Source: an uncultured Acidimicrobiia bacterium (GTDB lineage Bacteria > Actinomycetota > Acidimicrobiia > Spongiisociales > Spongiisociaceae). Taken from it: a stretch of DNA of 64,000 bases. Positions 25,601 to 56,555 of the stretch are shown here, piece by piece (the stretch's first letter is position 1; the number at the start of each line of letters is the position of its first letter). The translations under genes were made by a program, and so were the position numbers. Below the pieces are notes generated by a model, which saw nothing but the letters and a program-made list of their open reading frames with translations, searched no databases and was not told the origin of the DNA. Location: assembly GCA_958295745.1 (NCBI GenBank), contig OY282370.1, forward strand, positions 248,001 through 312,000, given 5' to 3'.

Positions 25601-28600
25601 GATGTTGAAAGTGCCCGAACCGCTGAGCTGCCCGGCCGGGATGGTGATCGTCAGCTCGTCGTTGGTCGCATCGGTCCAGAAATCCCCGGCAGCCGGCGGC
25701 CCCGCCGACCCCAAAGTAGCTCCCTTCGTTCCCGCCCCGTCCGCCATGGTTACCGTCACTTCGGTGGGTTCGGTCAGAACCGAGCTGGTGCCCTTGAACC
25801 GGGCCGTAACCGTTACCGACTGCGCGGCCGCCTGCTCTACGAACTTGGAGGTGGACACCTCCAGGTCGATGTTTGCGTCGTCGTCGGCTATCGTCACCCA
25901 CCCGACGGGATCTCTCAAAATAGTCGAGCTGGTGTACGTGCCGGCCAGATCCAAAGTTTCCGGCCCCTCCACCACCCGGTCGTCGGTGATCGACAACCCA
26001 GCCAAAGAAACCGTGGTGCTGCTAACGAAAGCCCCGCTGGGTATAGTCATCGCCGCCGGGGGAGGCGAAGGCCGGGTATAAGTGAAATCGGTGCTGTCCG
26101 CCCTACCCGCCAGTCCACGCAAACGAGTAGACTCGGCTATGAGCTCCCAATGGTCAACGTCCGGGACGAGCCTAGCACCCGTCCCCGGCGACACCGAAGT
26201 AAGGGTAGCGGTTGTCACGGTAGAAAACTTCAGGGAAGTTGCCTCGTCCGGGAAACGGGCCGTCACCCTCACCGCCGAACCCGACCCGCCCTCGGCAACC
26301 AGCATATCCGGTTTGAAAAACACCCGCCCCTCGACATCGGCGATCTTTATCACCGCCGGTTCCACCGTCCACCCCTCCGGGGCGGTCACCGTCGCCTGCA
26401 TGGTTTCCTCCCCCTCCACTTGATAATCCCCCGGAAAGGATATAGTCACACGACTACTCCTATTGGCCCTCAGAGCAACCGCAGAAACATCACCGGCCCC
26501 GATGGTCACAGTCAGCGGATGACCAGCCTGGTCGTGGTCGTGGTAGTAATCTTGGGAGGTCAACGCTTCGCTCGCGGCATTAGGCAAGTTCCCGGGTGGG
26601 AACAAAACCGGCAAAACCAAATCCTCACTCAAAGTAGAAGACGCCCCGCTCACGGCAGCAGACACCGTCATAACATGCGAATCTCGAGCATCGTAAGACT
26701 CAACAGCGGTATCGTCACTGACGGTCACCTTGATGGTCCGATCCGCGTCGGTGATCTCCAGATCAGCCGACCTCACCAAATCGGCCTCACCGGTGATCTT
26801 GATTATCTCATGGTCCTCGGTAACCGTATCAGACAACGGAGTGATAGTAATATCACCCGAAGTAATCTCGGTCGTATTAGCCAACAACGTCATCGTCGTC
26901 GTGGCAGGGCTGGCGGTGTAATCACCCGAAGCGCCCCGCACCGCCCCACTGCCCACGCCCCCTATCGTAACCGTCACCGTCCTGTCGGTAGCTATCGACT
27001 TGGTGGCCACGGCCTTCACCCGCACCGTCGCCGCTCCGTCGTCTTCGCCCAACGCAGTCACCGCCGCCGGGTTCGTCTCTGCGGTATCGATGACGCTGAG
27101 GTCGATAACCCGATCCGGGTCGTAGACAGCGATCTCGGCGCCGGTTACCGCCACCGTCGACCCGCCCACCGTCGCCGACCCCGAAACGGCCACCCTCTCA
27201 CCGCTGTCCTCAACGGTGTCCGAGTTGGCGGTCAGCATGAACGTCCCGGTCCCCTTCAGCTCCCTCGCCGGGATGCTGACCGTCAACTGATTGTTGGTTT
27301 GGTCGGTGAAAAAATCCCCGGTGGGGGTCTCCCCTCCCATACCCAGAGTCGCCCCGTTCACAGCAGCCCCGGCGATGTCCACCGTCACGGCCGTAGCCGA
27401 AGCCAGAACAGACGAAGCCCCCTTGAACCGGGCCGTAACCGTAATCTCCGTAGCAACATCGTTCTCGAACACATTCGTCGGGGAAACCTCCAGCTCGATA
27501 TCAGCATCGTCGTCGTAGATCGTCAACGAAGCCGCAGTAGCCGCCCCCCACGAAGACGACCCGCCCACCAACAGCGTCTCCGGGCCCTCCACCACCGTGT
27601 CATCCACCAAAGACAACCCCGCCAACGACCCCGCCGTAGAACTGATAATCGAGTTGGCGGGTATGGTCACCGTTTCCGGCGTCGAGGGCGAATAAGTGAA
27701 ATCGGCGCTGGTTGCCTTACCCGCCCCGGCGGGGGTCTCCGCCGTAACCGACAACGTAACCGTAGTCGCGGACCCGATAGTAGAAGAAGTAACCCTCGAC
27801 GGGAACCCCGCCGACACCGCCACCCCCGAACCCGTCCCGGCGTCCTCAGACACCACACTCTGATTCCCGTCCGTATCACTGTCAGAATCCAAACCAAACA
27901 CCACCCGCCTGCCATGAGGATCCCGAACCGTGAACGCCGCCCGCCGAACTGTAAACCCCTCCACAGCATCCACCCTCACATAACCCCGCTCATTTTCCTC
28001 TGCCACCGCATCATTATAGAAAAGAAGGGATAAACGACCTCCAAAAATCGCATTATGAAAATCCCCCGAAATAGACCCAACCGGAATACTGATCGTTAAC
28101 GCCTCATCTTCACCACCAGAAGTGTCATAAAAGTAATCACTAGGCCATGTAAGTTCCCCGCTATCAACCCGCACCCGCATACTCAAAGCAGAACTATACG
28201 TAGAACTAGTAGAAGGAGTAAACACCCCACCCGACACCCCACCCAAAGAAGCCCCTCCAAGAAACGACTTCGCAAGAGTCCCAGACCCATATTCCCCAGA
28301 CAACGGCTCATCAACCTCTGTATCACCTTCCAATTTGACCTCGATAACCCGGTCCTGGTCGGTGATCGTCAAAGTGACGGTATTAGCTGCTGTATACCTC
28401 GGGGCGGAGGCAACGAAAATGATGGTCTCGTGATCTTCCGTAATAGTGTCGCTGTTGGGAGTGATCGTTATAATACCGGAAGTTCTAGAAGTCTCACCGG
28501 CATTGAAATAGATATTACTAAACCTATGAGTCGTACTGTAATCACCCGTACAAACCCTCTTATTAGTAGACCAATCCGTCCGGCAACGCCCCTGAGTAGC

Positions 28601-28861
28601 CGTACTGCCCGAACCAGTCGCACCAACCCCGAACGACACCCTCACCCGAGAACTCGCCGCCTGCGACAACACCACCTTCACCCGCAAACTCAAAGGCGAA
28701 CCATCCTCCCCCAACGAAGTAGCAGAAAGCGGCGACCCCGAAGTATCGACCAAACTCAACGTAAACGTAGCCGCCTGCGCCCCCGCCGGACGAAAAGGAA
28801 CCACCGGCAACACAGCCAACACCAACCCCAACGCCAGCACCACCGCCAAAACCCTCCGCAT
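13700..28861 (-). CDS. Giant secreted Calx-beta-like repeat protein with poly-Gly hinge and SLH-like C-terminus
   Basis: A 5053-residue exported surface protein. Residues 1 to about 32 form a signal peptide (RR then a long hydrophobic stretch, ending AGAQAA). About residues 35-4785 are Calx-beta-like beta-sandwich repeats of roughly 110 residues, recognisable by recurring (D)D-x-I-x-E-[GD]-x-E-[TX] and [TI]-[DV]-[DN]-[DN]-D ends that in this family bind Ca2+; I estimate about 40. They are arranged in higher-order blocks of several domains. Then come Pro-rich linkers, a run of 26 Gly (14375-14452), another Pro-rich linker, and three SLH-like repeats (about 4850-5035) with the actinobacterial GC...YCP...RxQMA pattern. 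The ATG at 28861 is preferred over a GTG at 28867. Function is probably adhesion or a surface fibre held to the envelope by the SLH-like part. Parts of the array are near-identical at DNA level, so assembly errors and recombination are both likely. Confidence 0.85.
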   Translation of the reverse strand: MRRVLAVVLALGLVLAVLPVVPFRPAGAQAATFTLSLVDTSGSPLSATSLGEDGSPLSLRVKVVLSQAASSRVRVSFGVGATGSGSTATQGRCRTDWSTNKRVCTGDYSTTHRFSNIYFNAGETSRTSGIITITPNSDTITEDHETIIFVASAPRYTAANTVTLTITDQDRVIEVKLEGDTEVDEPLSGEYGSGTLAKSFLGGASLGGVSGGVFTPSTSSTYSSALSMRVRVDSGELTWPSDYFYDTSGGEDEALTISIPVGSISGDFHNAIFGGRLSLLFYNDAVAEENERGYVRVDAVEGFTVRRAAFTVRDPHGRRVVFGLDSDSDTDGNQSVVSEDAGTGSGVAVSAGFPSRVTSSTIGSATTVTLSVTAETPAGAGKATSADFTYSPSTPETVTIPANSIISSTAGSLAGLSLVDDTVVEGPETLLVGGSSSWGAATAASLTIYDDDADIELEVSPTNVFENDVATEITVTARFKGASSVLASATAVTVDIAGAAVNGATLGMGGETPTGDFFTDQTNNQLTVSIPARELKGTGTFMLTANSDTVEDSGERVAVSGSATVGGSTVAVTGAEIAVYDPDRVIDLSVIDTAETNPAAVTALGEDDGAATVRVKAVATKSIATDRTVTVTIGGVGSGAVRGASGDYTASPATTTMTLLANTTEITSGDITITPLSDTVTEDHEIIKITGEADLVRSADLEITDADRTIKVTVSDDTAVESYDARDSHVMTVSAAVSGASSTLSEDLVLPVLFPPGNLPNAASEALTSQDYYHDHDQAGHPLTVTIGAGDVSAVALRANRSSRVTISFPGDYQVEGEETMQATVTAPEGWTVEPAVIKIADVEGRVFFKPDMLVAEGGSGSAVRVTARFPDEATSLKFSTVTTATLTSVSPGTGARLVPDVDHWELIAESTRLRGLAGRADSTDFTYTRPSPPPAAMTIPSGAFVSSTTVSLAGLSITDDRVVEGPETLDLAGTYTSSTILRDPVGWVTIADDDANIDLEVSTSKFVEQAAAQSVTVTARFKGTSSVLTEPTEVTVTMADGAGTKGATLGSAGPPAAGDFWTDATNDELTITIPAGQLSGSGTFNITARVDGDNTEDIETAAVTGSASVGGRAVTVTGTEVKIYDPDQAIVIGFTDTASTPAAVTAVAEDGGAQTIRVTATLPSAVTSDTVINVDIAAAGSTATAGSAGDYTVDASTTTVTIRSGQTTGSSGNITITPRSDTITEDHETIRFTADTAADLYPGQTDLEITDQDRVIGVYLTGDTEFDEKASGQFGLSKSLNGGASLGGVSGDVFTASTSSTYSSALSMRVRIERGVNFEQWSEGDYLYEVYDASEEITISIPAGSLSGGFYNSIYGGTLAIIFYHDDKAEGDEHGYATVDQVDPAGFTVRRAVFTLRDPHDSRVVLGLDTDSGTSGDQTTIVEGAAGSGVDVSAGFPSGVTSSTIGSATSVTLSVTGYMNPTTGQAGSDDFSYSPLSPQTVSIPANTISSSTDVTLTGFSITDDNIVEGPETLTVGGTSALGADTTGAVLTIGDDDADIELMVSPAGVLEQAAAHTITVTARFKGAVSVLTAATDVTVDIAGAADNGATLGSSSTGDFYTDATNNRLTITIPAGQLSGTGTFELTARSDGETEATPEGVALTGSATVGGAEVTVDAAEVTIFDVGSRTIGLSFTDTASPTPAAITAVAEDGGAQTIRVVATASAAVDADTTVTVNIGGAGSTAAAGSAGDYTVGASTATVTILNGQTTGSSADVVVTPRSDTITEYHETIRFFGSTSSLYLVNSGDLQITDQDRALEVTTARSSGDECASGTCSNNLDLDWARVTLGGLSGSVFTASTSSTYSSAIRARLDEGPLNSVSSDNAITHNLGTGGVPMHVDISAGSLTGNLQESGGSQIVLMSTPADNAAEDNETFNVTLTDLPAGFTAVPATMTIRDPHDRGVVLGVDTESDTIGDQTVIVEGDAGSEVDVSAGFPSGVTSSTIGSATSVALSVTGGSGAGAAGSADFTYSPSSPNTVSIPANTISSTTDGTLTGLSITDDNIVEGPETLTVGGTSTSLGTVAGAVLTIGDDDADIELVVSPAGVLEQAAAHTVTVTARFKGSSSVLAAATTVTVDIAGASTNGATLGSAGPPPTGDFYTDLTNNRLTITIPAGQLSGTGTFELTARSDGETEAATEKVALTGSATVGGASVTVDAAEVTIFDVGSRTIGLSFTDTASTPAVVTAVAEDGGAQTVRVVATASAAVESNTTVTVNIGGAGSTATAGSAGDYTVGASTATVTILNGQTTGSADVVVTPRSDKITEDHETIRFSGSAPLYLVNPGDLRITDQDRALEVTTARSSGDECASGRCENNLSLDWAKVTLGGVTGSVFTASTSSTYSSTIRARLDDRPIRLSSGSNIRKDLDLAGFPLYVDISAGSLSEYLEDSFNSRIVRLGTAADNVAEDDDTFNVTLTDLPAGFVAVPATMTVRDPYDRQVVLTADTDSGTDENQTVISEDVGAVAGAAVSAGFPSGVTSSTIGSVTSVALSVTGGSGAGQAGSADFSYSPSSPQTVSIPANTISSTAAAVLTGLSITDDDIVEGPETLTVGGTSAWGAATGAVLTIDDDDADIVLSVSPGTVVEQAGAHTITVTARFDGSSSVLTSATAVTVNIAGGSGEDGAVLGDFTTDVVGNQFTITIPAGQVSGQGTFRLTAPADGSTEGAEKVTLSGAASVGGLAVAVTSADITIVDSGVTLSLGDSSGNALTSLAESSGSTQVRVTAALPVAAVLDVVVGVNVLGGTALLGGGATFAEGEDFRVVYPSKAAGTPAGHLLGILIAAGSTSGYADVTLVVNDDDVAEGSVAETVVVSGGNVTAGGGSLPVLSASLGIADNDTAISLGFGSTATAEESDGNAGDALITASFTGASASEIGSDTVVVLSFAAGAGAEAADFTAPASGSEITVTIPAGSVSSTAAALSGLSVTNDAIAEESEAIAVSGTAAGYSVTGADLSIVDDDAVVHLSVLGGTTVSEGGNGSAAAVSAGFGSGTTSSDISSDTVVTLSAADGTATSPGDYGYAPSVPNTVTIPAGAVSSSTAGSLAGLTVEDDTIAEGPETIAVGGSSTLGAAVGFDLAVADADSGIELSVSPATVVEQAGAQTISVVARFADAASSVRDSDVVVTVTVAGGGGTDGAVLGTGAGKDFTTDQTANSFTITIPAGQTSGRVSFGLTAPADSADEGAEKVALSAAATVDGAAATIADAEVTIVDTGVSLSFADSGGNPLTSLAEDSGANTVRVTATLQVVAAYSVVVGLNAAGGTAVADTDGSFSVGEDYRVVYPSKLAGTPDGHLLGIRIPAGSKSGYADITVAVNDDNTAEGAAAETVLVSGGDVVVNASPLPVLPAALGIADNDTTISLSFGSTTADEADGDARDAMITARFVGANASEIGAATPVELSFAAGAGTEAADFTAPASGSEITVSIPAGAVSNTVGLGGLAVTDDTIAEAGETIAVSGAAAGYTITGAALPITDDDAAVVLSVPSGASVSEGGDGSGVAVSAGFESGTTSSDIASDTVVTLSVADGTAVSPADYRYSGGSDTVTIPAGATSSSTAASLDGLTIEDDAITEGPETVRINGSSPLGTATGAVLGVSDADTAIEIAVSPATVEEQAGAHTVTVTARFVGVSSSTRTTATPVTVTVAGGGGADGAVLGASGDFTTDQTNNRFTVSIPAGQTAGSGSFELVARDDGDSEVAEKVALSASAVVDGSAVSISDAAMTIVDNGVTLSFADSGGTALTGLAEDGGAAQVTVTATLPAAAAGVVVVPLRVTGGTAVLDTDSVWAAGEDFRVSYPSDPAPGDGYPMGISIAAGQTTGSAVVTVTVNDDRVAEGITAETIRVSGGSVDISGVSLPVETETLGIVDDDSDIAVVLSRSTVDETDTDAGAGAVTAVVRFVGADTSVLGSAVEVELSFTAAAGTEAADFGAPGSGSEITVTIPAGSTTSPAVALSGLTITGDQRAEPDEDITVGGTAAGYTVTGTVLTIVDDDSAVVLSIPGGTAVSEGGNGSGVAVSAAFQTGTTDSEFAADLEVVLSVEDGTASAADYDYTPGTANTVTIPTGTTSSTDTGSLAGLAISDDTVTEGPEMLRITGTTAVGVGVSGTDLAITDTDTGITVTASPATVTERVGAHTVTVAARFAGAGSSTRTAATSVTVTVAGGGGTDGALLGASGDFTTDQTGNSFTVSIPAGQTAGSGSFELTARDDGSNEDAEKVALSAAASVDGSAATIADAEITIVDSGITLALTDTGGNALTALAENSGDTTVRVTATLPVAAPFGGVVVGVNAVGGTAVLDTGSSFEAGEDARVSYPSGSPPAGHLLGISIDAGSTTGSADFTLTVHDDTAAEGSDAETILIQGGNVTVGGDSLPVVSAGLGITDNDAAPTAIGLSVENAEGEALAGVEEDSGTTRVHVRASYTGTRTLPGAVTVPLTVGKAGDGAESGTDYQEITDQLLITIPAYTRTAATSFDLVIGETENDDDFEGPEALTIEGDPSDTLAGFTVGDATLTIIDDDAIVGLSLFAAASDSEPLLEVTEGETATVKVKAAFPAGVTLPEETTVPVTVEAAAQRGAAPGSDYQRVPAFDIIIPANANKGTKSFDLKLDGSYNDDIVEGDETLQVTGGTAPFTIQAASLTVRDSTDDTAPTGITLTVSPTSLTEAAGTAAVTVTVRLAGSKTLAADTPVRVTVSGNRGATAADYQASSFTVIIPAEQNQGQATRNITIIDDTADDDNERIALTGTAADLNNARATAYINIVDNDVPAPPQPADPPPADPPPTGGGGGGGGGGGGGGGGGGGGGGGGGGAPPPPAPAPPPAPPPVICSGRFCDDDGNGHEANIERIAGWQITLGCDANDPTKYCPNVQIPRRQMAAFLYRAVSQRWTIQDPPEGTEIPDVPADVWFRSYANWVVSIGAFALTDGAFNPNGVVTRADMAIMMIAAFPHLESVAEPEGLFEDVEGVDPAVIHAIEGMYHSGVTKGCSTTPLNYCPNQPVTRAQMASFFVRAIDLVPVPPPTPAPEGEGGTGGEGT
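14375..14452 (-). repeat. 26-codon poly-glycine tract
   Basis: Twenty-six consecutive GGN codons of mixed third base (GGT, GGC, GGA, one GGG), flanked by Pro-rich segments. The mixed codons mean the peptide rather than a DNA slippage unit is maintained. It forms a flexible hinge between the Calx-beta stalk and the SLH-like anchor. Confidence 0.93.
21555..21705 (-). repeat. Variable patch A1 inside a duplicated Calx-beta block
   Basis: The blocks 21440-21870 and 23040-23480 are near-identical on both sides, but about 150 bp in the middle (here and 23158-23310) are diverged and visibly more AT-rich. The encoded peptides share frame and length class but little sequence (for example RLSSGSNIRKDL here). 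A cassette-like replacement or relaxed/diversifying selection is likely. Confidence 0.6.
23158..23310 (-). repeat. Variable patch A2 inside a duplicated Calx-beta block
   Basis: Counterpart of the patch at 21555-21705, bounded by the same conserved sequence (YVDISAGSL or HVDISAGSL just beyond one half, TSSTYSS at one edge). The encoded middle reads NSVSSDNAITHNL, unrelated to the other copy. A second such pair of patches occurs near 24740-25060 and 27960-28300. Confidence 0.6.
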
Positions 28862-29171
28862 GACCACCTAACCCTTTCTCCCGGCCTTCAAAACCAACGA
28901 ACCAAGCACCAATCCCCCGGCCCCCCGCAGCTCAGCCCCCGGCCTACAAGCCCGCCGACCCGCCAACCGCCGCGCCCACGGGACCACCACAACCGAAGAC
29001 GCTACACCCCACCCGACACCCCATAACACGCCGAGCATAAACAACTAAGATACCCCCCCCCCCGCGGATTCTGTCAAAATCAGACACCCCGCCGCCGCCG
29101 GCCATACAACGGACAACGACCCGGCGATCCGGCAATCAGACATCCCTCTTTCGGGGGAACCATGGGCGCGG
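28862..29171. other. Upstream region of the giant gene
   Basis: About 310 bp between the giant gene and the thioredoxin-fold gene, both on the minus strand. It is C-rich on the plus strand, has an 11-C tract at 29053-29063, and otherwise shows no convincing gene. The giant gene promoter must lie here; I cannot assign -35/-10 boxes with confidence. Confidence 0.55.
29053..29063 (-). repeat. Poly-G tract (11 G) about 190 bp upstream of the giant gene
   Basis: Eleven C on the plus strand, not inside any credible gene. It is the only other homopolymer of 10 or more in the window besides the four in the restriction gene. Its place upstream of a surface-protein gene makes length-dependent promoter or regulator-site spacing plausible. 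Confidence 0.85.
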
Positions 29172-49679: not shown

Positions 49680-50447
49680 GTGCCGGACCCGACCCGACAA
49701 GCCGCCGATCTCCTATACGGATGCACCCGCCTGCTGGTCTTCACCGGCGCGGGGATATCCACCGAGTCTGGGATACCGGACTTCCGCGGGCCCGACGGCC
49801 TGTGGACCAAAGTCGACCCCGACGACTTCACCATCGAGCGTTACCTGTCTTCTTCGGAAGTTCGGAAACGGAGCTGGATCAGGTGGGCCGCCTCGCCCCT
49901 GCGCCGCGCCCGGCCCAACCCCGCCCACCGGGCGGTGACGGAGCTGGCAGACATGGGGCACCTGGAAGGATGCGTGACCCAGAACATCGACGGCCTGCAT
50001 CAGGCGGCCGGTCTGCCCGAAGAGCTCACCGTCGAGGTCCACGGCAACGTATGGTCGGTGCGCTACCTGGTATGTCAGGCCGGCTGGCCGACCGGGGAGG
50101 TGTTCGATCGGGTGGAGGCGGGCGAGGAAGACCCTCACTGCCCGGACTGCGGCGGGATGATCAAGCTGACGGTGGTCTCCTTCGGCCAAGCCATGCCAGA
50201 GGAAGCGATGAGCCGCGCCTACGGGATGGCCAGCCGCGCCGACGGGGTGCTGGCGGTGGGCACCACCCTCTCGGTATGGCCCGCCGCCGACATTCCCCTG
50301 ACCGCCGCCCGCCGGGGTGTTCCCTTCGTGATCGTGAACATGGGGGCCACCGACTTCGACCGAACCGCCCATCTGAAGGTCGAGCGCCCGGCCGGGGAGG
50401 TCCTGCCCGAGCTGGTGGATCTGATCAGGGCGGGTTTACAGGATTGA
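49680..50447 (+). CDS. NAD-dependent protein deacylase, sirtuin family
   Basis: Removes acyl groups from lysine using NAD+. The 255-residue protein has GAGISTESGIPDFRG near 23, TQNIDGLH near 100 and the catalytic His in VHGN near 120. The zinc ribbon normally has two CxxC pairs; the second (CPDC) is intact, but the first has only one Cys (VCQAG). FGQAMP stands where FGExxP is usual. Loss of one zinc ligand may weaken metal binding or be replaced by a nearby residue. The GTG at 49680 is chosen as it precedes the conserved start. The adjacent acyl-CoA genes make a role in reversing acyl-lysine marks (for example propionyl) attractive, but that is inference. Confidence 0.88.
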   Translation: MPDPTRQAADLLYGCTRLLVFTGAGISTESGIPDFRGPDGLWTKVDPDDFTIERYLSSSEVRKRSWIRWAASPLRRARPNPAHRAVTELADMGHLEGCVTQNIDGLHQAAGLPEELTVEVHGNVWSVRYLVCQAGWPTGEVFDRVEAGEEDPHCPDCGGMIKLTVVSFGQAMPEEAMSRAYGMASRADGVLAVGTTLSVWPAADIPLTAARRGVPFVIVNMGATDFDRTAHLKVERPAGEVLPELVDLIRAGLQD

Positions 50448-50476
50448 AGACAAACGACCGGCATCTGCTTTGAGAT

Positions 50477-50800
50477 CTATGAGGCATATAATCTAGTTCT
50501 GGTCTGTTCGATTCTTTCGCGAAAGTAAGGATTCTCAAAACCCTTGGCATTCCACATGATCAGACCTACCGAACAATCCAACAAAGATGAGAGTTCTCGC
50601 TCCAGCTTGAAGTATATTTTCAAGAGAGACCTGTTGGGATTAGGATTAGGGTGGAAGTCCACCAGGAATTCTATTTCTTCCTCCATGGACGGATGGAAAT
50701 CCCCGGTTACAGCTGAGCCTACGATCTCCAAAACTTTGACATGGTGCTCCTTGCAGAGATCTATTATCTTGTCGGTCTGGTCGGCTACCTGGGAGATCAT
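50477..50800 (-). CDS. MNT-like nucleotidyltransferase domain protein
   Basis: A 107-residue protein with the minimal nucleotidyltransferase fold: IVGSAVTGDFHPS followed by EEIEFLVDF, then the LERELSSLLDCSVGLI segment and a C-terminal NPYFRERIEQTRTRLY. In active MNT antitoxins the sequence after GS is S-D-I-D-hydrophobic; here the acidic pair is E-I-E. No HEPN partner gene lies next to it, so it is not a normal HEPN-MNT pair. The ATG at 50800 has GGAGAGGG just upstream. The GC content is lower than its neighbours. Confidence 0.65.
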   Translation of the reverse strand: MISQVADQTDKIIDLCKEHHVKVLEIVGSAVTGDFHPSMEEEIEFLVDFHPNPNPNRSLLKIYFKLERELSSLLDCSVGLIMWNAKGFENPYFRERIEQTRTRLYAS

Positions 50801-50865
50801 CGTCCCTCTCCTGTCATCCCCGGCAGTGTAACGGTTGCCTGCACAGATCGGGTACCCTGTTCGGT

Positions 50866-52071
50866 ATGGCGCTCTCGTACAGCGAGCTGGTGGCCGACGC
50901 CCGGCGGCAGATCCGGGAGATATCGGTCGACGAGCTGGCCGCCCTCCACGGACGGCCGGTGATGCTGGTGGACGTACGGGAACAAGTGGAGTGGGAGCAG
51001 GGGAAGATACCGGGGGCGGTCCATGTTCCTCGAGGGGTACTGGAAGGCGCCGTCGGTCGGTTGGCCGGGCCGGCTGCGGCAACCGACCATGCCGACGGAC
51101 GCACCATCGTGCTCTATTGCGCATCGGGGATCCGCTCGGCCCTGGCCGCCTACACCCTGAAGACGATGGGATACACCAATGCCTGCTCGTTGGCGGGCGG
51201 CTTCCAGGCCTGGAAGTCCAGAGGAGGCCCCTGGGAGCTGCCCGGGGGTCTGTCCGTTGCGCAACAGGCGCGCTACGACCGCCATATCCGGCTTCCCGAG
51301 GTGGGAGAGGCCGGACAGCAGGAGCTGTTGGAGGCCAGGGTGCTGGTGGTGGGGGCGGGAGGGCTCGGCTCGCCGGCCGCCCTCTATCTGGCCGCGGCCG
51401 GGGTGGGGACCATAGGCATAGCCGACCACGACCGGGTGGACATCTCCAACCTGCAGCGCCAGATACTCCACAACGTGCGGTGGGTGGGGCAGAAGAAGGT
51501 CGAATCGGCCCGCGACATGCTCGGAGGGTTGAACCCCGACGTAACGGTCGAGGCCCACGACACACGCTTGGAGGCGGCGGGGGTGCTCGACCTCCTGGAA
51601 GGATACGACCTGGTGGTCGACGGCACCGACAACTTCCCGACCCGCTACCTGCTCAACGACGCCTCGATCCGCCTGGGGATCCCGGTGGTCCACGGCTCGG
51701 TGTTCCGCTTCGAGGGCCAGGTGAGCACCTTCGACCCGGGCAGCGGACCCTGCTACCGATGCCTGTTCCCCGAGCCGCCCTCCCCAGATCTGGCCCCCGA
51801 CTGCAACGAAGCCGGCGTGCTAGGCGTGCTGCCCGGCGTGATAGGAACCCTGCAGGCCGTCGAAGCCCTAAAGCATCTGCTGGGCATCGGCGACACCCTC
51901 GTAGGCAGGATCCTCCTCTACGACGCCCTAGCCCAGGAGTTCCGCATCCTGACCTTCGCCAAAGCCGCCGCCTGCCCGGCCTGCGGCGACCCGGCCAACC
52001 CCCCGCCCCTGACCGACTACGACGAGACCTGCACCGCCCGGACCACTGGCCGACCCTCCTCCATCGAGTAG
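50866..52071 (+). CDS. Rhodanese-ThiF/MoeB fusion (sulfur-carrier adenylyltransferase)
   Basis: Activates the C-terminus of a ubiquitin-like sulfur carrier (MoaD/ThiS type) and probably supplies the sulfur. The 401-residue protein has an N-terminal rhodanese domain (VDVREQVEWEQGKIPGA near 36, active-site Cys in YCASGIRS near 85) and a C-terminal E1-like domain (GAGGLGSPAALYL near 165, DRVDISNLQRQ near 190, VVDGTDNFPTRYL near 248, zinc Cys pairs CYRC and CPAC). In the better-known MoeZ/MOCS3 type the rhodanese is C-terminal, so the order is reversed. The cofactor could be molybdopterin, thiamine or a sulfurated amino-acid pathway. Confidence 0.87.
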   Translation: MALSYSELVADARRQIREISVDELAALHGRPVMLVDVREQVEWEQGKIPGAVHVPRGVLEGAVGRLAGPAAATDHADGRTIVLYCASGIRSALAAYTLKTMGYTNACSLAGGFQAWKSRGGPWELPGGLSVAQQARYDRHIRLPEVGEAGQQELLEARVLVVGAGGLGSPAALYLAAAGVGTIGIADHDRVDISNLQRQILHNVRWVGQKKVESARDMLGGLNPDVTVEAHDTRLEAAGVLDLLEGYDLVVDGTDNFPTRYLLNDASIRLGIPVVHGSVFRFEGQVSTFDPGSGPCYRCLFPEPPSPDLAPDCNEAGVLGVLPGVIGTLQAVEALKHLLGIGDTLVGRILLYDALAQEFRILTFAKAAACPACGDPANPPPLTDYDETCTARTTGRPSSIE

Positions 52072-52115
52072 GCAGTCCGGGGGGGGAGGTAGCAAAGCGA
52101 AAATCCACCAACCAG

Positions 52116-52220
52116 TTGGTCGAAGCAGATAATTGGAATAATCCTGATGAAATTACGTTTATGAGATTAGTAGAGCTGCACCGCTGCGAGGTGTGGCAGA
52201 CCAAATACTCACGGAGGTGA
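52116..52220 (+). CDS. Small ORF upstream of DUF2188
   Basis: An open frame, protein-like and of lower GC, reads ADNWNNPDEITFMRL then VELHRCEVWQTKYSRR and ends TGA 4 bases before the DUF2188 ATG. From the first plausible start (TTG 52116) it gives 34 residues. An 8-G run (52079-52086) lies just upstream in the same frame, which stays open through it. It may be the tail of a gene truncated at the insertion boundary. No family recognised. Confidence 0.35.
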   Translation: MVEADNWNNPDEITFMRLVELHRCEVWQTKYSRR

Positions 52221-52223
52221 GCT

Positions 52224-52469
52224 ATGCGTAAAAGAAACGAACGACATGTCACCCCCCACCCCGATGGTGGCTGGAACGTAAAGAAACCCGGGGCATCCAG
52301 AGCCAGCGCTCAGGCACGTACACAGAAAGAAGCCATGGACCGAGCTAGGGAGATACTACGGAACAGCGGTGGCGGTGAGTTGGTGATTCATGATCGCAAG
52401 GGCAGGATTCGTGACTCGGACACCGTACCTCCAGGCAACGACCCTTATCCACCGCGTGATAAGCGATAA
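52224..52469 (+). CDS. DUF2188 domain protein
   Basis: An 81-residue protein with the DUF2188 pattern: HVTPHPDGGWNVKKPGA, then ASAQARTQKEAMDRAREI and GGELVIHDRKGRI. These small proteins are widespread and occur near mobile and defence genes; the function is not known. The strong ribosome binding site GGAGG at 52213-52217 sets the ATG. The Abi_C gene follows after 11 bp, so both are probably one transcript. Lower GC than the surroundings points to transfer. Confidence 0.78.
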   Translation: MRKRNERHVTPHPDGGWNVKKPGASRASAQARTQKEAMDRAREILRNSGGGELVIHDRKGRIRDSDTVPPGNDPYPPRDKR

Positions 52470-52480
52470 AGGATTACCTA

Positions 52481-53335
52481 ATGAGAAGAATTGACAATAC
52501 CCGACACCCGGTAAGTGATGAAATAGCAGCTACACTAGGGGCTTTTGTTTCAGGCGGTGATGGGCCAACTCATACCGTGCTAACTCAAATATTCGATCGG
52601 ACCGGATATGGGTCTATTGCACCCTACAACTGGGACGATAAGAGTCAGCAACCTAACAAAGAAAATCGAGTTCGCTTAACAGTCCTAGAATCGGTAGGTA
52701 ATCCCGCGAGATCACGTGATCTAATAGAGGGACTTCTAGCCGAATATCGAGCGTTCAGATTTTTTACCCAAGGTGAGGATCCTGCCAAAGAAAAGGAGCG
52801 CCTGATAAAATGCCGATCCGCACAGCAAGCCTTTATGCGGATCGGCTGGGATCTAACCACATCAGGTGAGATTCACCCTGCGGGTGTAGCATCTGTAGCT
52901 TCCGCAGAAGGTCGGCCAGCAATTGAAGATCAACTTGAACGACTCAGGCGCGGTTCGGATGATCCAGCCTTGATGCTTGGGACAGCAAAAGAAATGCTGG
53001 AATCAACCGCCAAGTACGTATGCGAAGACTTCAGTGTGCCGTATCGTCCAAACACATCGTTTGACGAATTGTGGCACCATGCTCGAGAGCGACTAGGTAT
53101 CCTGCCAAATCAAGTAAATCTTAGTGAGCCAGGAGCCAAAGAGCTTCGTACGATCCTGCAATCTTCATGGACAATTGCTAGCATGGCTAACAAGCTTCGT
53201 AACAACGAAGGTACCGGACATGGAAGGACTTTACCTACAGCTATCAGTCCGAGCGTGGCACATATAGTGGTCCGGGAAGCTTGTAGTATCGTCCAACTTG
53301 TCTTGGAGACGCTTGATATTCAGATGGGTAGGTAG
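52481..53335 (+). CDS. Abortive-infection (Abi_C domain) protein
   Basis: A 284-residue soluble protein. The C-terminal half matches the Abi_C pattern: LGTAKEMLESTAKYV near 167, the DELWHHARERLG segment, LRTILQSSWTIASMAN near 225, and RNNEGTGHGR near 245, followed by a long helix. The N-terminal half (about 1-150) is of unknown type. Abi_C proteins are linked to phage-triggered growth arrest or death, generally by an unknown mechanism. The His-containing GTGHGR motif is the best candidate active site. The low GC and the flanking gene fragments indicate a recently acquired insert. Confidence 0.72.
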   Translation: MRRIDNTRHPVSDEIAATLGAFVSGGDGPTHTVLTQIFDRTGYGSIAPYNWDDKSQQPNKENRVRLTVLESVGNPARSRDLIEGLLAEYRAFRFFTQGEDPAKEKERLIKCRSAQQAFMRIGWDLTTSGEIHPAGVASVASAEGRPAIEDQLERLRRGSDDPALMLGTAKEMLESTAKYVCEDFSVPYRPNTSFDELWHHARERLGILPNQVNLSEPGAKELRTILQSSWTIASMANKLRNNEGTGHGRTLPTAISPSVAHIVVREACSIVQLVLETLDIQMGR

Positions 53336-53400
53336 TCGTATTGGTGATGATACACTACCGGCTCATCGAGGATTTCAGGGCGAGTGAAGGTGGGGAGTAC

Positions 53401-53520
53401 TTGGTTGTCAACGGCACCGACAAACGGCCCGGTCTGCGGAGAACCCGGCCACTAAGGGGCCGCTGGTCGACTACAACGAGACCTGCGCCGTAGCCCGCGC
53501 CTCGATAACCGCCTCCGGTA
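53401..53520 (+). pseudogene. Remnant of a MoeB-like gene
   Basis: Two short blocks resemble the intact rhodanese-MoeB gene: 53401-53423 matches 51610-51632 (LVV(N/D)GTD) and 53469-53486 matches 52015-52032 (DY(N/D)ETC) with one mismatch. The 380 bp between them in the intact copy is missing. The defence insert thus lies between the real moeB 3' end and a collapsed second copy, as if insertion came with a partial duplication. Confidence 0.5.
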
Positions 53521-53550
53521 GACGAACCCCCGGACGGGTAGCCTGGGTTC

Positions 53551-54537
53551 ATGGGATACGACCTGGTCTCCATAGGGGAGACGATGCTCCGCCTGTGGGT
53601 GCCCGCCGGGGAGCGGCTGGAAGACGCCCCCCGCTACCGGGTGGGGCTGGGGGGAACGGAGGGCAACACCGCGGTGGCCGCCGCCCGCCACGGGCTGTCT
53701 GCGGCCTGGATATCCCGCCTGCCGGACAACCCGCTGGGGAGGCGGGCGGCCCGCTTCCTGGCTGGACAAGGAGTGGATGTCTCGCATGTGAGGTGGGACC
53801 CGGAAGGGCGGATGGGGGTGTATTTCCTGGAGCTGAGCGAAGGCGTGCGCCCCGTGTCGGTGCTCTACGACCGGGCGGGATCAGCCGCCGCCGCCCTGTC
53901 CCCCGAAGACGTGGACCGGGAAGTGGTGGAACAGGCCAAGGCGGTCCACCTGACCGGCGTCACCATGGGCATCTCCGAATCCGCCCGGCGGACGGTGCTG
54001 GAAGCCGCGGCCCGGGCCCGGCAGGCCGGGGCGAAAGTGGTGGTGGACGTCAACTATCGGAGCAAGCTGTGGCCGCCGGAAACCGCCGCCCCGGCCATTC
54101 GGAATCTGTGCGCGCGGGCGGAAGTGGTGATAACCACCCGGGAGGACGCCCGGGACCTGTTCGGCGTTGCCGGTGAGTCGGCGGCAGCGGCGGCCGCGGT
54201 CAAAGAGCTCACCGGAGCGGAGGTGATAGTCGTAACCGACGGAGCTGCGGGCGCGGCCTGGGAGGGCGGAGATGTCTACGGGCGCGGGCATCGGGGCGGA
54301 TACCCGGCGCCGGTGATCGACCGGGTGGGCGCGGGGGACGCTTTCGCGGCCGGGGTGATCATCGGCCTGGTCCGAACCGGAGGCAGGGCCGGCTTGGAGG
54401 AGGGCGTGGAGCGGGGTTTGGCCATGGCCGCCGTCAAACTGGGGATCACGGGCGACTATCTGACCGCCTCCCCGCAAGAAATCGAAAGCGTACTGTCTTC
54501 CGATGCCCACCGCCCCGGAAGACAGGTGAGCAGATGA
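53551..54537 (+). CDS. PfkB-family sugar kinase (2-keto-3-deoxygluconate kinase-like)
   Basis: Ribokinase-fold kinase of 328 residues. SIGETMLRL at the N-terminus, the GGTEGNTAVAAARHG segment near 34, and the signature with catalytic Asp, DRVGAGDAFAAG near 262. The early pattern (GETM-L with GG-x-x-N-x-A) is nearest to 2-keto-3-deoxygluconate kinases, but fructokinases and ribokinases cannot be excluded. VDVNYRSKLWP near 165 is also usual in KDG kinases. No other Entner-Doudoroff gene is in the window. Confidence 0.82.
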   Translation: MGYDLVSIGETMLRLWVPAGERLEDAPRYRVGLGGTEGNTAVAAARHGLSAAWISRLPDNPLGRRAARFLAGQGVDVSHVRWDPEGRMGVYFLELSEGVRPVSVLYDRAGSAAAALSPEDVDREVVEQAKAVHLTGVTMGISESARRTVLEAAARARQAGAKVVVDVNYRSKLWPPETAAPAIRNLCARAEVVITTREDARDLFGVAGESAAAAAAVKELTGAEVIVVTDGAAGAAWEGGDVYGRGHRGGYPAPVIDRVGAGDAFAAGVIIGLVRTGGRAGLEEGVERGLAMAAVKLGITGDYLTASPQEIESVLSSDAHRPGRQVSR

Positions 54538-54643
54538 GGGAAGCCGGTCGGCCGAGGACTGTTCAGCGTTTCTGCTCCAACGAGAGGAGCGAATCGGACC
54601 TGTTATGACTATGGTTGAAGAAGACTGCGGTAGGAGAACGACC

Positions 54644-54898
54644 ATGGCGACCGAGCTCGACGTTGTAGATGTCGAACCTCGTGAGGACTGGAGAATCTGG
54701 GTTGAGTTCGAAGACGGGGTGCGGGGGGAAGTCGACGTGAGCAACCTGCAGAACCTGCATGTTTTCGCCGCTTTACACGACCGAAGTGTGTTCGAGAAGG
54801 TTTACGTTCACCCTATATTGAAGATGGTGTGCTGGGGAGAGGACCTGGAAATATCTTCCTGTAGCTTATATGCCAGCCTTATCTCAGAAAGAGTTTGA
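54644..54898 (+). CDS. DUF2442 domain protein
   Basis: An 84-residue protein: VDVEPREDWRIWVEFEDG, GEVDVSNLQN, FEKVYVHPILKMVCWGEDLEIS. It is the usual partner of DUF4160 proteins; the pair is regarded as a likely toxin-antitoxin-type or mobile accessory module, with the mechanism unknown. The ATG is fixed by AGGAGA 7 nt upstream. Its TGA overlaps a TTG that may start the next gene. Related to the orphan at 13069-13335 (shared RIW(I/V)xFxDG and GEVD). Confidence 0.78.
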   Translation: MATELDVVDVEPREDWRIWVEFEDGVRGEVDVSNLQNLHVFAALHDRSVFEKVYVHPILKMVCWGEDLEISSCSLYASLISERV

Positions 54899-54900
54899 TT

Positions 54901-55200
54901 TTGCCATGCGTGTGCATGTTCGCCGGCTTGAGAATCTATTTTCATTGGAATGAAGAAAGCCACTACACGCCTCATTTCCATGTAAGGCTCCGCAATGGGC
55001 AACGGGTCGCATCCATAGCCATAGAGACCGGACAAGTTTTAGCCGGGAATGCGGCATACACCAAGCTAGCCAACAAACAGCGCAACCTACTGGAGGAATG
55101 GAGAAAAAACAACCAGAACGAACTAATGAGAATCTGGGGCCAAGCTCAGGCGGGTAATATTCCAGACAGAATACCCCCACCGAAAGGGATCTCTCCCTGA
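54901..55200 (+). CDS. DUF4160 domain protein
   Basis: About 99 residues beginning MPCVCMFAGLRIYFHWNE, then YTPHFHVRL, AIETGQVLAG and LLEEWRKNNQNELMRIWG. This is the DUF4160 pattern (GI-x-I-x-x-Y...PHFH...G-x-x-x-G...W...EL). The PHFH motif is the likely functional site. The start is a TTG at 54901, or at 54895 where TTG overlaps the DUF2442 stop; both imply coupling with DUF2442. The pair has lower GC than neighbours. Confidence 0.78.
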   Translation: MPCVCMFAGLRIYFHWNEESHYTPHFHVRLRNGQRVASIAIETGQVLAGNAAYTKLANKQRNLLEEWRKNNQNELMRIWGQAQAGNIPDRIPPPKGISP

Positions 55201-55274
55201 ATTGTCGTATATTGATTATATTCGGGTCTTAGCGACTGATGGAATGACTCTGAATATTGTATGTACCCCCTCTG

Positions 55275-56555
55275 CTATCGGGCGCCGAAGCCGCTCAGCA
55301 CCGTCCAGCAGCTCCGCCCGAGGATCTCGAGGTCGAGCCAGGGGCTCATGTGTTTGAGGTAGAAGAGGTCGTAGGTCAGCTTCTCGATGGTGTCGGCGTC
55401 GCCGTCGGCGTATCCATAGTTCACCTGCGCCCAGCCCGTTATGCCGGGGCGGATCAGGTGACGGTGCGAGTAGAAGGGAATCTGTCGGTTGAACCGGCGG
55501 ACGAAATCCACCTGCTCCGGACGGGGGCCCACCAGGCTCAGATCGCCCTTCAGCACGTTCCACAGCTGCGGGATCTCGTCCAGCCGAAAGCGCCGCATCA
55601 CCCGTCCGAACGGAACCACCCGTTCGTCACCCTTCTGGGTAAAGGCAGGCCCGCCGAGTTCCGAACCCTCCCACATGGACCGGAACTTGTATTGAGTGAA
55701 GAGCTCCCCTCCCCGGCCTACCCGGGTCTGGCGGAAGATGATCGGCCCGGGCGAGCTGAGCCGGATGACCGCCGCCAATCCCGCCGCCGCCGCCAGGGTC
55801 AGGGGCGCCGTCACCGTGACGGCCAACACATCGAACAGCCGCTTACCGGGCAGATAGGGGGCGGTGCGCAAGACCGGGGCCGACAGCTCCCATCCCTCCG
55901 CCAGGGAAACGATCGGCATCCGTCCGGTATGCATCTCGTATATCTCGGACAGCGGACGAACATCGAATCCGGCCAGCGTGCAGGACGAGACGTACTGCGC
56001 CATCCGGTCCGACAACACCGACCTCAGGTCGACGCCCAGTACCACCCCTTCCGCCAGCGGTTCGACATGGCCTTCGGTCGAGGGGTCCATGACCGAAACG
56101 ACCTCGGTATGGGGGGCGCCGCGCAGATCGTCCACCAGACCCTTCTCGGCCGTGACCAGCACCATGGACTCCGTCCAAGGCCTCCCGCCGCGCACCGCCC
56201 GATGCGCCAGAGCCCCTATCAGAAAGAGGGTCATCGACCATCCGATGAGAGATCGGGAGAAATACACCCGGGTGGCGATGAGCGCCAAGGAGGTGACCCC
56301 CAGGGTCATGAAAACCACCGCCGCCGCCCGGCCGTAGCTGGGCCGGGGGGCGCTCCCCGCCGACAACCGGGCGCCGGTCCACTCGGCCAAAGCGAGGCTT
56401 CCGAACATGATCACCAGCAGAGAAAACACCTGCCGCTCGAACAACCACGGGAAGGGAGTGCCGAAGTTGACGACAGACGCCAGGCCGATCGACAGCAAAA
56501 GGGTGGCCGCATCGAGAAGGGCTTGGGTCCACAAGAACCTGCGTCGCATCATCAC
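55275..56555 (-). CDS. Undecaprenyl-phosphate sugar phosphotransferase (bacterial sugar transferase)
   Basis: Starts a surface polysaccharide by moving a sugar-1-phosphate to undecaprenyl phosphate. The 426-residue protein has four to five N-terminal membrane helices (to about 125), a CoA-binding-like soluble region, and the C-terminal catalytic domain: KRLFDVLAVTV near 240, SSPGPIIFRQTRVGRGG near 270, QYKFRSMW, RRFRLDEIPQLWNVLKGD near 328, SLVGPRPE, and RPGITGWAQVNYGY. This is the WbaP/PglC-type core with the DE pair. The initiating sugar is unknown. Confidence 0.92.
   Translation of the reverse strand: MMMRRRFLWTQALLDAATLLLSIGLASVVNFGTPFPWLFERQVFSLLVIMFGSLALAEWTGARLSAGSAPRPSYGRAAAVVFMTLGVTSLALIATRVYFSRSLIGWSMTLFLIGALAHRAVRGGRPWTESMVLVTAEKGLVDDLRGAPHTEVVSVMDPSTEGHVEPLAEGVVLGVDLRSVLSDRMAQYVSSCTLAGFDVRPLSEIYEMHTGRMPIVSLAEGWELSAPVLRTAPYLPGKRLFDVLAVTVTAPLTLAAAAGLAAVIRLSSPGPIIFRQTRVGRGGELFTQYKFRSMWEGSELGGPAFTQKGDERVVPFGRVMRRFRLDEIPQLWNVLKGDLSLVGPRPEQVDFVRRFNRQIPFYSHRHLIRPGITGWAQVNYGYADGDADTIEKLTYDLFYLKHMSPWLDLEILGRSCWTVLSGFGAR

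What the first reader, a model, noticed from the sequence alone, without database searches (positions are those of the whole stretch)
52079..53520. Low-GC DUF2188/Abi_C defence insert bounded by moeB 3' sequences
The insert starts right after the intact rhodanese-MoeB gene and ends before a collapsed remnant carrying two pieces of the same gene (GTD and DY-x-ETC regions). An 18-bp direct repeat (one mismatch) at 52015-52032 and 53469-53486 thus flanks it. This could be an integration hotspot at the moeB 3' end.
Basis: partly seen in the sequence, partly recalled or inferred. Interest (0 to 1): 0.5.

Follow-up and report, generated by a model that had tools for sequence, protein, structure and literature searches.

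The report
Foreign phage-defence gene pair behind moeB
A bacterium has gained a small pair of probable virus-defence genes in a spot that is empty in its relatives, and the first gene of the pair belongs to a little-studied family that often stands at the head of very different bacterial immune systems.

Summary
A low-GC gene pair (DUF2188, 11 bp, then an Abi_C "abortive infection" gene) lies between intact moeB and a moeB 3'-end remnant (49 of 63 bases identical). In 12 of 13 family genomes with moeB, moeB and the convergent sugar-transferase gene nearly touch (gap -23 to 96 bp); here they are 3203 bp apart, and the gap also holds pfkB and a DUF2442/DUF4160 pair. So the site is empty in relatives and the cargo was gained. 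A hotspot is not supported: no relative examined carries cargo there.

The Abi_C protein looks AbiJ-like, with an invariant R-x6-H that I read as a HEPN RNase motif. Of 12 relatives examined, none has DUF2188 beside it, so the pair is not obligate.

The larger lead is DUF2188 (PADLOC candidate PDC-S16). In 8 of 42 other loci a CBASS operon, with varied effectors, follows it directly; others precede TIR, KAP or (named plasmids) ubiquitin-like conjugation genes, several beside an XRE/ImmA-type regulator. I read it as a portable antitoxin- or regulator-like leader gene. That function is inferred, and more than half of the loci show no known immune gene directly downstream.

The parts
50866..52071 (+). 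intact moeB (rhodanese-ThiF); its 3' end is the source of the repeat
   Evidence: Pfam ThiF E 1.1e-81, Rhodanese E 1e-20
52015..52032 (+). 18-bp repeat, left copy, inside moeB 3' end
   Evidence: one mismatch to 53469-53486
52224..52469 (+). DUF2188 gene (PADLOC PDC-S16), 81 aa
   Evidence: Pfam E 2e-25; PADLOC E 2.2e-28
52481..53335 (+). Abi_C gene, 284 aa, AbiJ-like layout; R240/H247 read as HEPN motif; 11 bp after DUF2188
   Evidence: Pfam E 3.3e-15; PADLOC AbiJ E 0.0077; R240 and H247 invariant in 7 of 7
53399..53423 (+). possible moeB piece (GTD region)
   Evidence: 22 of 25 identical; 3 of 1000 shuffles reach the score
53427..53490 (+). moeB 3'-end remnant with the right copy of the 18-bp repeat (53469-53486)
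   Evidence: 49 of 63 identical; 0 of 1000 shuffles, 0 of 607 segments reach the score
53551..54537 (+). pfkB-type kinase, also absent from the junction in relatives; closest relatives found in another family (46%)
   Evidence: Pfam
54605..55200 (+). low-GC DUF2442 and DUF4160 pair, also absent from the junction in relatives
   Evidence: Pfam
55275..56555 (-). sugar-transferase gene (sugT), the ancestral convergent neighbour of moeB
   Evidence: adjacent to moeB in 12 of 13 family genomes with moeB and in 5 of 16 order-level genomes

Best explanation
A foreign two-gene defence module entered the moeB/sugT junction in this lineage. The likeliest route is recombination through moeB homology: incoming DNA with a moeB 3' part ahead of the cargo crossed over in resident moeB, leaving an intact (perhaps chimaeric) moeB, then the cargo, then a cut-off resident moeB 3' end that has decayed. 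The cargo works as an abortive-infection unit: the Abi_C protein, a HEPN-type RNase held in check by its N-terminal part and perhaps by DUF2188, cleaves RNA when a phage component is sensed, so that the cell stops or dies before phage release. DUF2188 is a portable small leader gene that damps or licenses the effector made after it. Shown: the insert, the empty sites, the family matches, the invariant motif, the repeated linkage of DUF2188 to immune operons. Inferred: RNase activity, the phage trigger, the role of DUF2188, the recombination route.
For: Empty junction in 12 of 13 family genomes with moeB, gap -23 to 96 bp against 3203 bp here, and in 5 of 16 order-level genomes. Low GC. moeB remnant far above both controls. 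The remnant codes LVDY, like all 15 relatives read, while the intact gene codes LTDY, so the remnant is not a recent copy of the present gene end. Within moeB the use of C against G at fourfold sites shifts (change after residue 339, permutation p 0.0015; none of 15 homologues exceeds LR 6.7 against 15.3). Abi_C relatives (59-66% identity; 3 family genomes and 6 Acidimicrobiia MAGs) have among their neighbours an Eco57I-type methylase, HsdM, a DEAD helicase, TIR, an NgoFVII-type PLD nuclease and an nSTAND-type ATPase. DUF2188 is followed directly by CBASS genes in 8 of 42 other loci and by immune-type genes in 8 of 18 plasmid records looked at. AbiJ mechanism as proposed in PMC3710099 (section 12 read).
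Against: 0 of 12 Abi_C relatives looked at have DUF2188 beside them (9 loci, of which L087 has only 360 bp upstream; 3 plasmids), so DUF2188 is not a fixed partner. The composition shift in moeB is not special (12 of 213 genes of this genome, moeB included, are as strong), it is not placed at the GTD site, and segment identities show no change of descent. The GTD piece is weak and the profile search of the remnant is not significant. The PADLOC AbiJ match is weak. The Abi_C model is poor (pLDDT 67) and finds no fold match. No activity of any kind was measured.
Confidence: 0.55

Rival explanations
1. DUF2188 and Abi_C are chance neighbours brought in together; DUF2188 has no role in the action of Abi_C.
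For: 0 of 12 Abi_C relatives looked at have DUF2188 beside them.
Against: 11-bp spacing on the same strand with a Shine-Dalgarno-like stretch before each start, and the same close spacing (7-20 bp) of DUF2188 ahead of effectors elsewhere.
Confidence: 0.35
2. Integrase-type island: a mobile element recombined at an att core in the moeB 3' end (the 18-bp repeat as attL/attR), replaced the gene's 3' end and later lost its integrase.
For: Direct repeat at both ends of the cargo, left copy at a gene 3' end.
Against: The moeB match reaches 42 bases upstream of the repeat, possibly to the GTD region; no integrase among the five proteins between moeB and sugT; no other cargo at this site in 17 junctions.
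Confidence: 0.2
3. Tandem duplication: moeB or its end was duplicated first, the second copy decayed, and the genes between came in later by unrelated events; the remnant marks no insertion event.
For: The remnant is most like the window's own moeB, then like G004 and G003 (scores 32, 28, 24). The stretch up to sugT also holds other gained genes, so several events took place.
Against: It needs one more event; the remnant keeps the V codon of the relatives that the intact gene lacks.
Confidence: 0.25
4. Abi_C here acts as an ordinary toxin of a maintenance (toxin-antitoxin) module with DUF2188 as its antitoxin, without a phage role.
For: Small gene before a predicted RNase gene; HicB antitoxins rank first for the DUF2188 model; DUF2188 proteins beside HicA- and BrnT-like genes.
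Against: Abi_C relatives stand without DUF2188 and near restriction and other defence genes.
Confidence: 0.2

Closest known systems
AbiJ-type abortive-infection proteins (HEPN with N-terminal AbiJ-NTD domains; PMC3710099, section 12 and passages read)
   Same: N-terminal part plus C-terminal Abi_C/HEPN part; PADLOC AbiJ matches the same region, residues 168-275; relatives near restriction genes, as that paper reports for solo AbiJ
   Different: AbiJ match weak (E 0.0077); the N-terminal part matched nothing in Pfam and was not compared with AbiJ-NTD1-5; DUF2188 neighbour
PADLOC candidate PDC-S16 (DUF2188)
   Same: full-length match
   Different: PADLOC lists it as a single-gene candidate; here and in 15 of 42 other loci another known or candidate defence gene follows directly
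CapH+CapP control genes of CBASS and Bub operons (PMC13373217, passages seen)
   Same: an XRE/HTH regulator, in three cases with an ImmA/IrrE peptidase, stands beside DUF2188 in 8 of 18 plasmid records looked at
   Different: none is next to the window's pair; whether those regulators are CapH/CapP was not tested
HicB antitoxins
   Same: first-ranked Foldseek match of the DUF2188 model (6hpb_B, probability 0.97)
   Different: E 0.096 over 39 columns only; VIA-align Z 3.3-3.4, below an anti-CRISPR protein (7f45, 5.4) and YegP (4.3)

Membership tests
Abi_C / HEPN abortive-infection protein | Abi_C domain above Pfam's cut-off | tested here: met
   56.4 bits against cut-off 24
Abi_C / HEPN abortive-infection protein | HEPN R-x4-6-H motif (recalled) conserved | tested here: met
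   R240-x6-H247 invariant in 7 of 7
Abi_C / HEPN abortive-infection protein | HEPN four-helix fold | tested here: inconclusive
   helical C-terminal half in a poor model, no fold match
Abi_C / HEPN abortive-infection protein | RNase activity and phage protection by growth arrest | not testable with these tools
   needs bench work
AbiJ | match to the PADLOC AbiJ model | tested here: inconclusive
   E 0.0077, residues 168-275
PDC-S16 / DUF2188 | full-length match to the model | tested here: met
   E 2.2e-28, model 1-74 of 75
type II toxin-antitoxin pair | fixed pairing of the two genes in relatives | tested here: not met
   0 of 12 Abi_C relatives looked at
integrase-borne genomic island | integrase gene within the element | tested here: not met
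   five proteins between moeB and sugT scanned with Pfam, none an integrase
integration hotspot | different cargo at the same site in other genomes | tested here: not met
   17 of 17 moeB-sugT junctions without cargo; G006 has another, non-defence gene by eye
CBASS | CD-NTase gene in the operon | tested here: not met
   none of the five insert proteins matches one; no SMODS match in the window's genome

The most novel reading that the evidence does not exclude
DUF2188 of this type is a general, portable first gene of bacterial immune operons. It is made ahead of very different killers (CBASS cyclases with phospholipase, SLATT-type or HNH-SAVED effectors; TIR; KAP NTPase; ubiquitin-like conjugation operons; here an Abi_C HEPN protein), often beside an XRE/ImmA-type switch, and acts as a shared guard, antitoxin-like or a sensor, that sets the threshold of whatever immune system stands behind it.
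Probability: 0.35. Interest if true: 0.7.

Novelty: new member of a known kind. Interest (0 to 1): 0.42.

Why it matters
The insert itself is one more small defence module gained by an Acidimicrobiia bacterium. What could matter is DUF2188: a small gene listed so far only as a nameless defence candidate that recurs as the first gene of several unrelated immune operons. If it has one shared job (antitoxin, damper or phage sensor), it is an overlooked common part of CBASS, TIR, KAP and ubiquitin-like systems, and deleting it from a CBASS operon in a laboratory strain would test this directly.

Tried and rejected
Structure of Abi_C: pLDDT 67, no significant Foldseek match; not used. Sequence search of the PDB for both proteins: nothing useful. 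moeB chimaera as proof of recombination: rejected as proof, since 12 of 213 genes (moeB included) have as strong a change point and segment identities show no switch. Profile search of the remnant: not significant. That pfkB brought the remnant with it: tblastn (E up to 0.01) finds no moeB in the pfkB regions of three genomes of family f3. Abi_C in viral contigs: none confirmed of 4 stretches. Rfam over 50000-56000: none at gathering score. Promoter scan: no clear excess. Abi_C in plasmids: 28 records, 6 with at least 80% coverage, best 46.9%. Papers: 'DUF2188' 7 papers, none about defence by title; with 'CBASS' 0; 'PDC-S16' 0. read 'Abi_C' as 'abic' and gave nothing used; two searches were seen as listings only.

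Limits of the DUF2188 count. Sets: phylum (22 places), viral, class. Left out: the window's own place (twice), four at a contig edge (L159, L161, L174, L125) and one locus found twice (G041). This leaves 42. A partner is the best-scoring same-strand ORF within 400 bp. The picker mis-set the window's own Abi_C start (gap 107 instead of 11). Nine loci had no such ORF or only a non-coding one (L165, L167, L171, L176, L177, L179, L136, L140, L143). All other partners were scanned with PADLOC except L129, whose printed start equals that of L128. Of the 15 positives, 8 are CBASS; the others are TIR, KAP/QatA-like, Dsr1-like, PDC-M14A, PDC-S39 (L128 and L129) and a weak LeoBC match (L124). In 27 of 42 nothing known follows directly. 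The control of 60 genes comes from one genome and reports families, not members; 16 families matched, at most 2 members each. The plasmid records were chosen for spread, not at random.

Full report
What is there. The window is G000:C1:248001-312000 of a 3.3 Mb genome. The named relatives of its Abi_C protein are Acidimicrobiia MAGs; that some of these come from sponges is recalled. Between moeB (50866-52071) and a sugar-transferase gene on the other strand (sugT, 55275-56555) lie, in order: DUF2188 (52224-52469), 11 bp, Abi_C (52481-53335), a moeB-like remnant (53399-53490), pfkB (53551-54537) and a DUF2442/DUF4160 pair (54605-55200). GC is 56.8% and 48.7% for the first two genes, 70.7% for pfkB, 51.2% and 49.8% for the last pair, 65.7% for the window.

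Is it foreign? Of 14 relatives of the same family, 13 have a full-length moeB (G002 has only a weak rhodanese-type match). In 12 of these 13, moeB and sugT are directly convergent, with -23 to 96 bp between the stop codons; here the gap is 3203 bp. Of 16 further genomes of the order whose moeB loci I had, 5 show the same order. None of those 29 loci matches any insert protein at E 1e-5 (flanks about 1.5 kb). In G006 a different long gene follows moeB (by eye a LysM and solute-binding protein). So the junction is ancestral and empty, and the cargo is specific to this lineage among the genomes held. No species of the same genus was among them. A recurring hotspot is not shown.

The remnant. The 18-bp repeat is real and is the best part of a match of 63 aligned bases (49 identical) to the moeB 3' end; shuffles and other window segments stay well below it. 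Similarity falls from the window's own moeB (32) through G004 (28) and G003 (24) to the rest. The remnant codes LVDY where the intact gene codes LTDY; all 15 relatives read have V there. So the remnant is not a recent copy of the present gene end. The GTD piece is weaker, and a profile of the relatives' moeB does not find the remnant significantly. The picture fits a crossover inside moeB by incoming DNA that carried its own moeB 3' part, leaving the resident 3' part downstream to decay. A composition change inside moeB fits loosely, but it is not at the GTD site and is not rare in this genome, so I hold this route at about even odds.

The Abi_C protein. It matches Abi_C well above the cut-off and AbiJ weakly. 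Relatives with 59-66% identity: three in the family and six in other Acidimicrobiia MAGs. Of 198 genomes searched, 9 have any match at E 1e-3, the window's own included. The C-terminal half is the better conserved (67-70% against 50-56%), with R240 and H247 invariant in 7 of 7. Among the neighbours of the nine are an Eco57I-type methylase (L056, L057), a DEAD helicase (L055), HsdM and an NgoFVII-type PLD endonuclease (L085), TIR (L084), an nSTAND-type ATPase (L083) and DUF3800 (L087); HsdM-like genes in L086 and L088 are by eye. No DUF2188 shows in these nine at tblastn E up to 1 (L087 has only 360 bp upstream), nor in the annotation of three plasmid relatives. PMC3710099 (section 12 read, passages) proposes for AbiJ that N-terminal domains sense phage parts and restrain a C-terminal HEPN RNase; I adopt that here as inference.

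DUF2188. The window's protein is a full-length PDC-S16. In the phylum sample 21 of 396 genomes have it (22 places). Leaving out the window's own and three at contig edges, 18 loci remain; in 3 a CD-NTase operon follows directly (G658; G424 with a SLATT-type gene first; G471), in 3 another PADLOC match (TIR in G526, a Dsr1-type SIR2 in G449, PDC-M14A in G482), in 12 none. In the viral collection 2 of 5 loci have CBASS genes (L157: phospholipase, cyclase, E2; L180: cyclase, then E1-E2). In the class sample (22 places in 18 of 395 genomes) 20 loci remain: CBASS in 3 (G008 phospholipase and cyclase; G004 HNH-SAVED and cyclase; G347 cyclase), a KAP/QatA-like NTPase in G017, PDC-S39 in two, a weak LeoBC match in one, none in 13. 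One locus (G041, negative) is in both samples. Together 8 of 42 loci have CBASS and 15 of 42 any PADLOC match directly downstream; 27 of 42 have none.

Base rate and control. Pfam SMODS finds 31 places in 27 of the same-sized phylum sample of 396 genomes, about 0.08 per genome, so by chance a SMODS gene within 1 kb is expected at roughly 3 in 100,000 loci; by the same model 2 of the 18 phylum loci have one (G424, G471). G467 has both genes but far apart. Sixty genes of the window's genome gave 16 PADLOC families, at most two members each, none of them cyclase, CBASS effector or E2.

Named records. Of 385 plasmid records with a match I looked at 18, chosen for spread. In 8 of 18 an immune-type operon starts directly downstream by annotation: CBASS phospholipase and nucleotidyltransferase (Roseovarius, Alisedimentitalea), nucleotidyltransferase and SLATT (Rhodococcus), multiubiquitin-ThiF operons (Sulfitobacter, Rhizobium), TIR (Agrobacterium vitis), DUF1883-TIR (Gordonia; Pfam), Vsr and cytosine methyltransferase (Methylocaldum). 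In 8 of 18 an XRE/HTH-type regulator is next to DUF2188 or one gene away, with an ImmA/IrrE peptidase in three. Of the other ten, five lie within 4 kb of a DndB, Cas9, DarT, HicA/HEPN or Abi gene and five show nothing of the kind. Passages of PMC13373217 describe CapH+CapP, a repressor and peptidase switched by DNA damage, as controlling CBASS and Bub operons; whether these regulators or operons are of those kinds was not tested.

What DUF2188 might do. The model (pLDDT 84.8) has three strands, a helix and two strands. Foldseek ranks a HicB antitoxin first (probability 0.97, E 0.096, 39 columns); VIA-align gives an anti-CRISPR protein Z 5.4, YegP 4.3 and HicB 3.3-3.4. None is decisive. Some DUF2188 proteins carry a second part or sit beside toxin-like genes: a Mycobacterium prophage gene annotated antitoxin beside one annotated BrnT-like (Pfam finds DUF2188 in the first and nothing in the second), a DUF2188-DUF7387 fusion, and a 203-aa DUF2188 protein beside a HicA gene in Curtobacterium. 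Together this suggests a guard- or antitoxin-like role. Against it: the window's Abi_C family manages without DUF2188 elsewhere.

Verdict. As a locus it is a new member of a known kind. Why DUF2188 heads so many immune operons is the part that deserves a bench test. In the library searched, 'DUF2188' gave 7 papers, none about defence by title, and none together with CBASS.

Noticed in passing
L115, L117, L135, L157, L160, L164, L175, L180, L186, L190: DUF2188 directly ahead of CBASS genes with different effectors (patatin phospholipase, SLATT-type, HNH-SAVED).
   Followed up: partly
L185, L188: DUF2188 directly ahead of multiubiquitin/E2/ThiF/DUF6527 operons, next to HTH and ImmA/IrrE genes, on alphaproteobacterial plasmids.
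   Followed up: no
L183:932-1823: HicA toxin gene beside a 203-aa DUF2188 protein, with a HEPN gene nearby (Curtobacterium plasmid).
   Followed up: no
L056:1020-4316, L057:7762-11361: Eco57I-type methylase genes near Abi_C relatives encode short peptide repeats (Pfam PT repeat in L057) that could come from a slippage-prone DNA tract; the DNA was not examined.
   Followed up: no
window about 50477-50800, minus strand: Low-GC (45.6%) small gene between Sir2 and moeB, by eye a lone nucleotidyltransferase-type (MNT) protein.
   Followed up: no
window 54605-55200: Low-GC DUF2442/DUF4160 pair between pfkB and sugT, a second gained module at the same junction.
   Followed up: partly
window 53551-54537: pfkB-type kinase whose closest relatives found are in another family of the order (46%), not in its own.
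   Followed up: partly
window 13703-28867, minus strand: 5055-codon ORF with internal repeats about 1.5-1.6 kb apart.
   Followed up: no
L060:3172-3564 (G000:C1:421165-421563): Second, distant Abi_C domain (33% identity) in the same genome, among transport and metabolic genes by eye.
   Followed up: no
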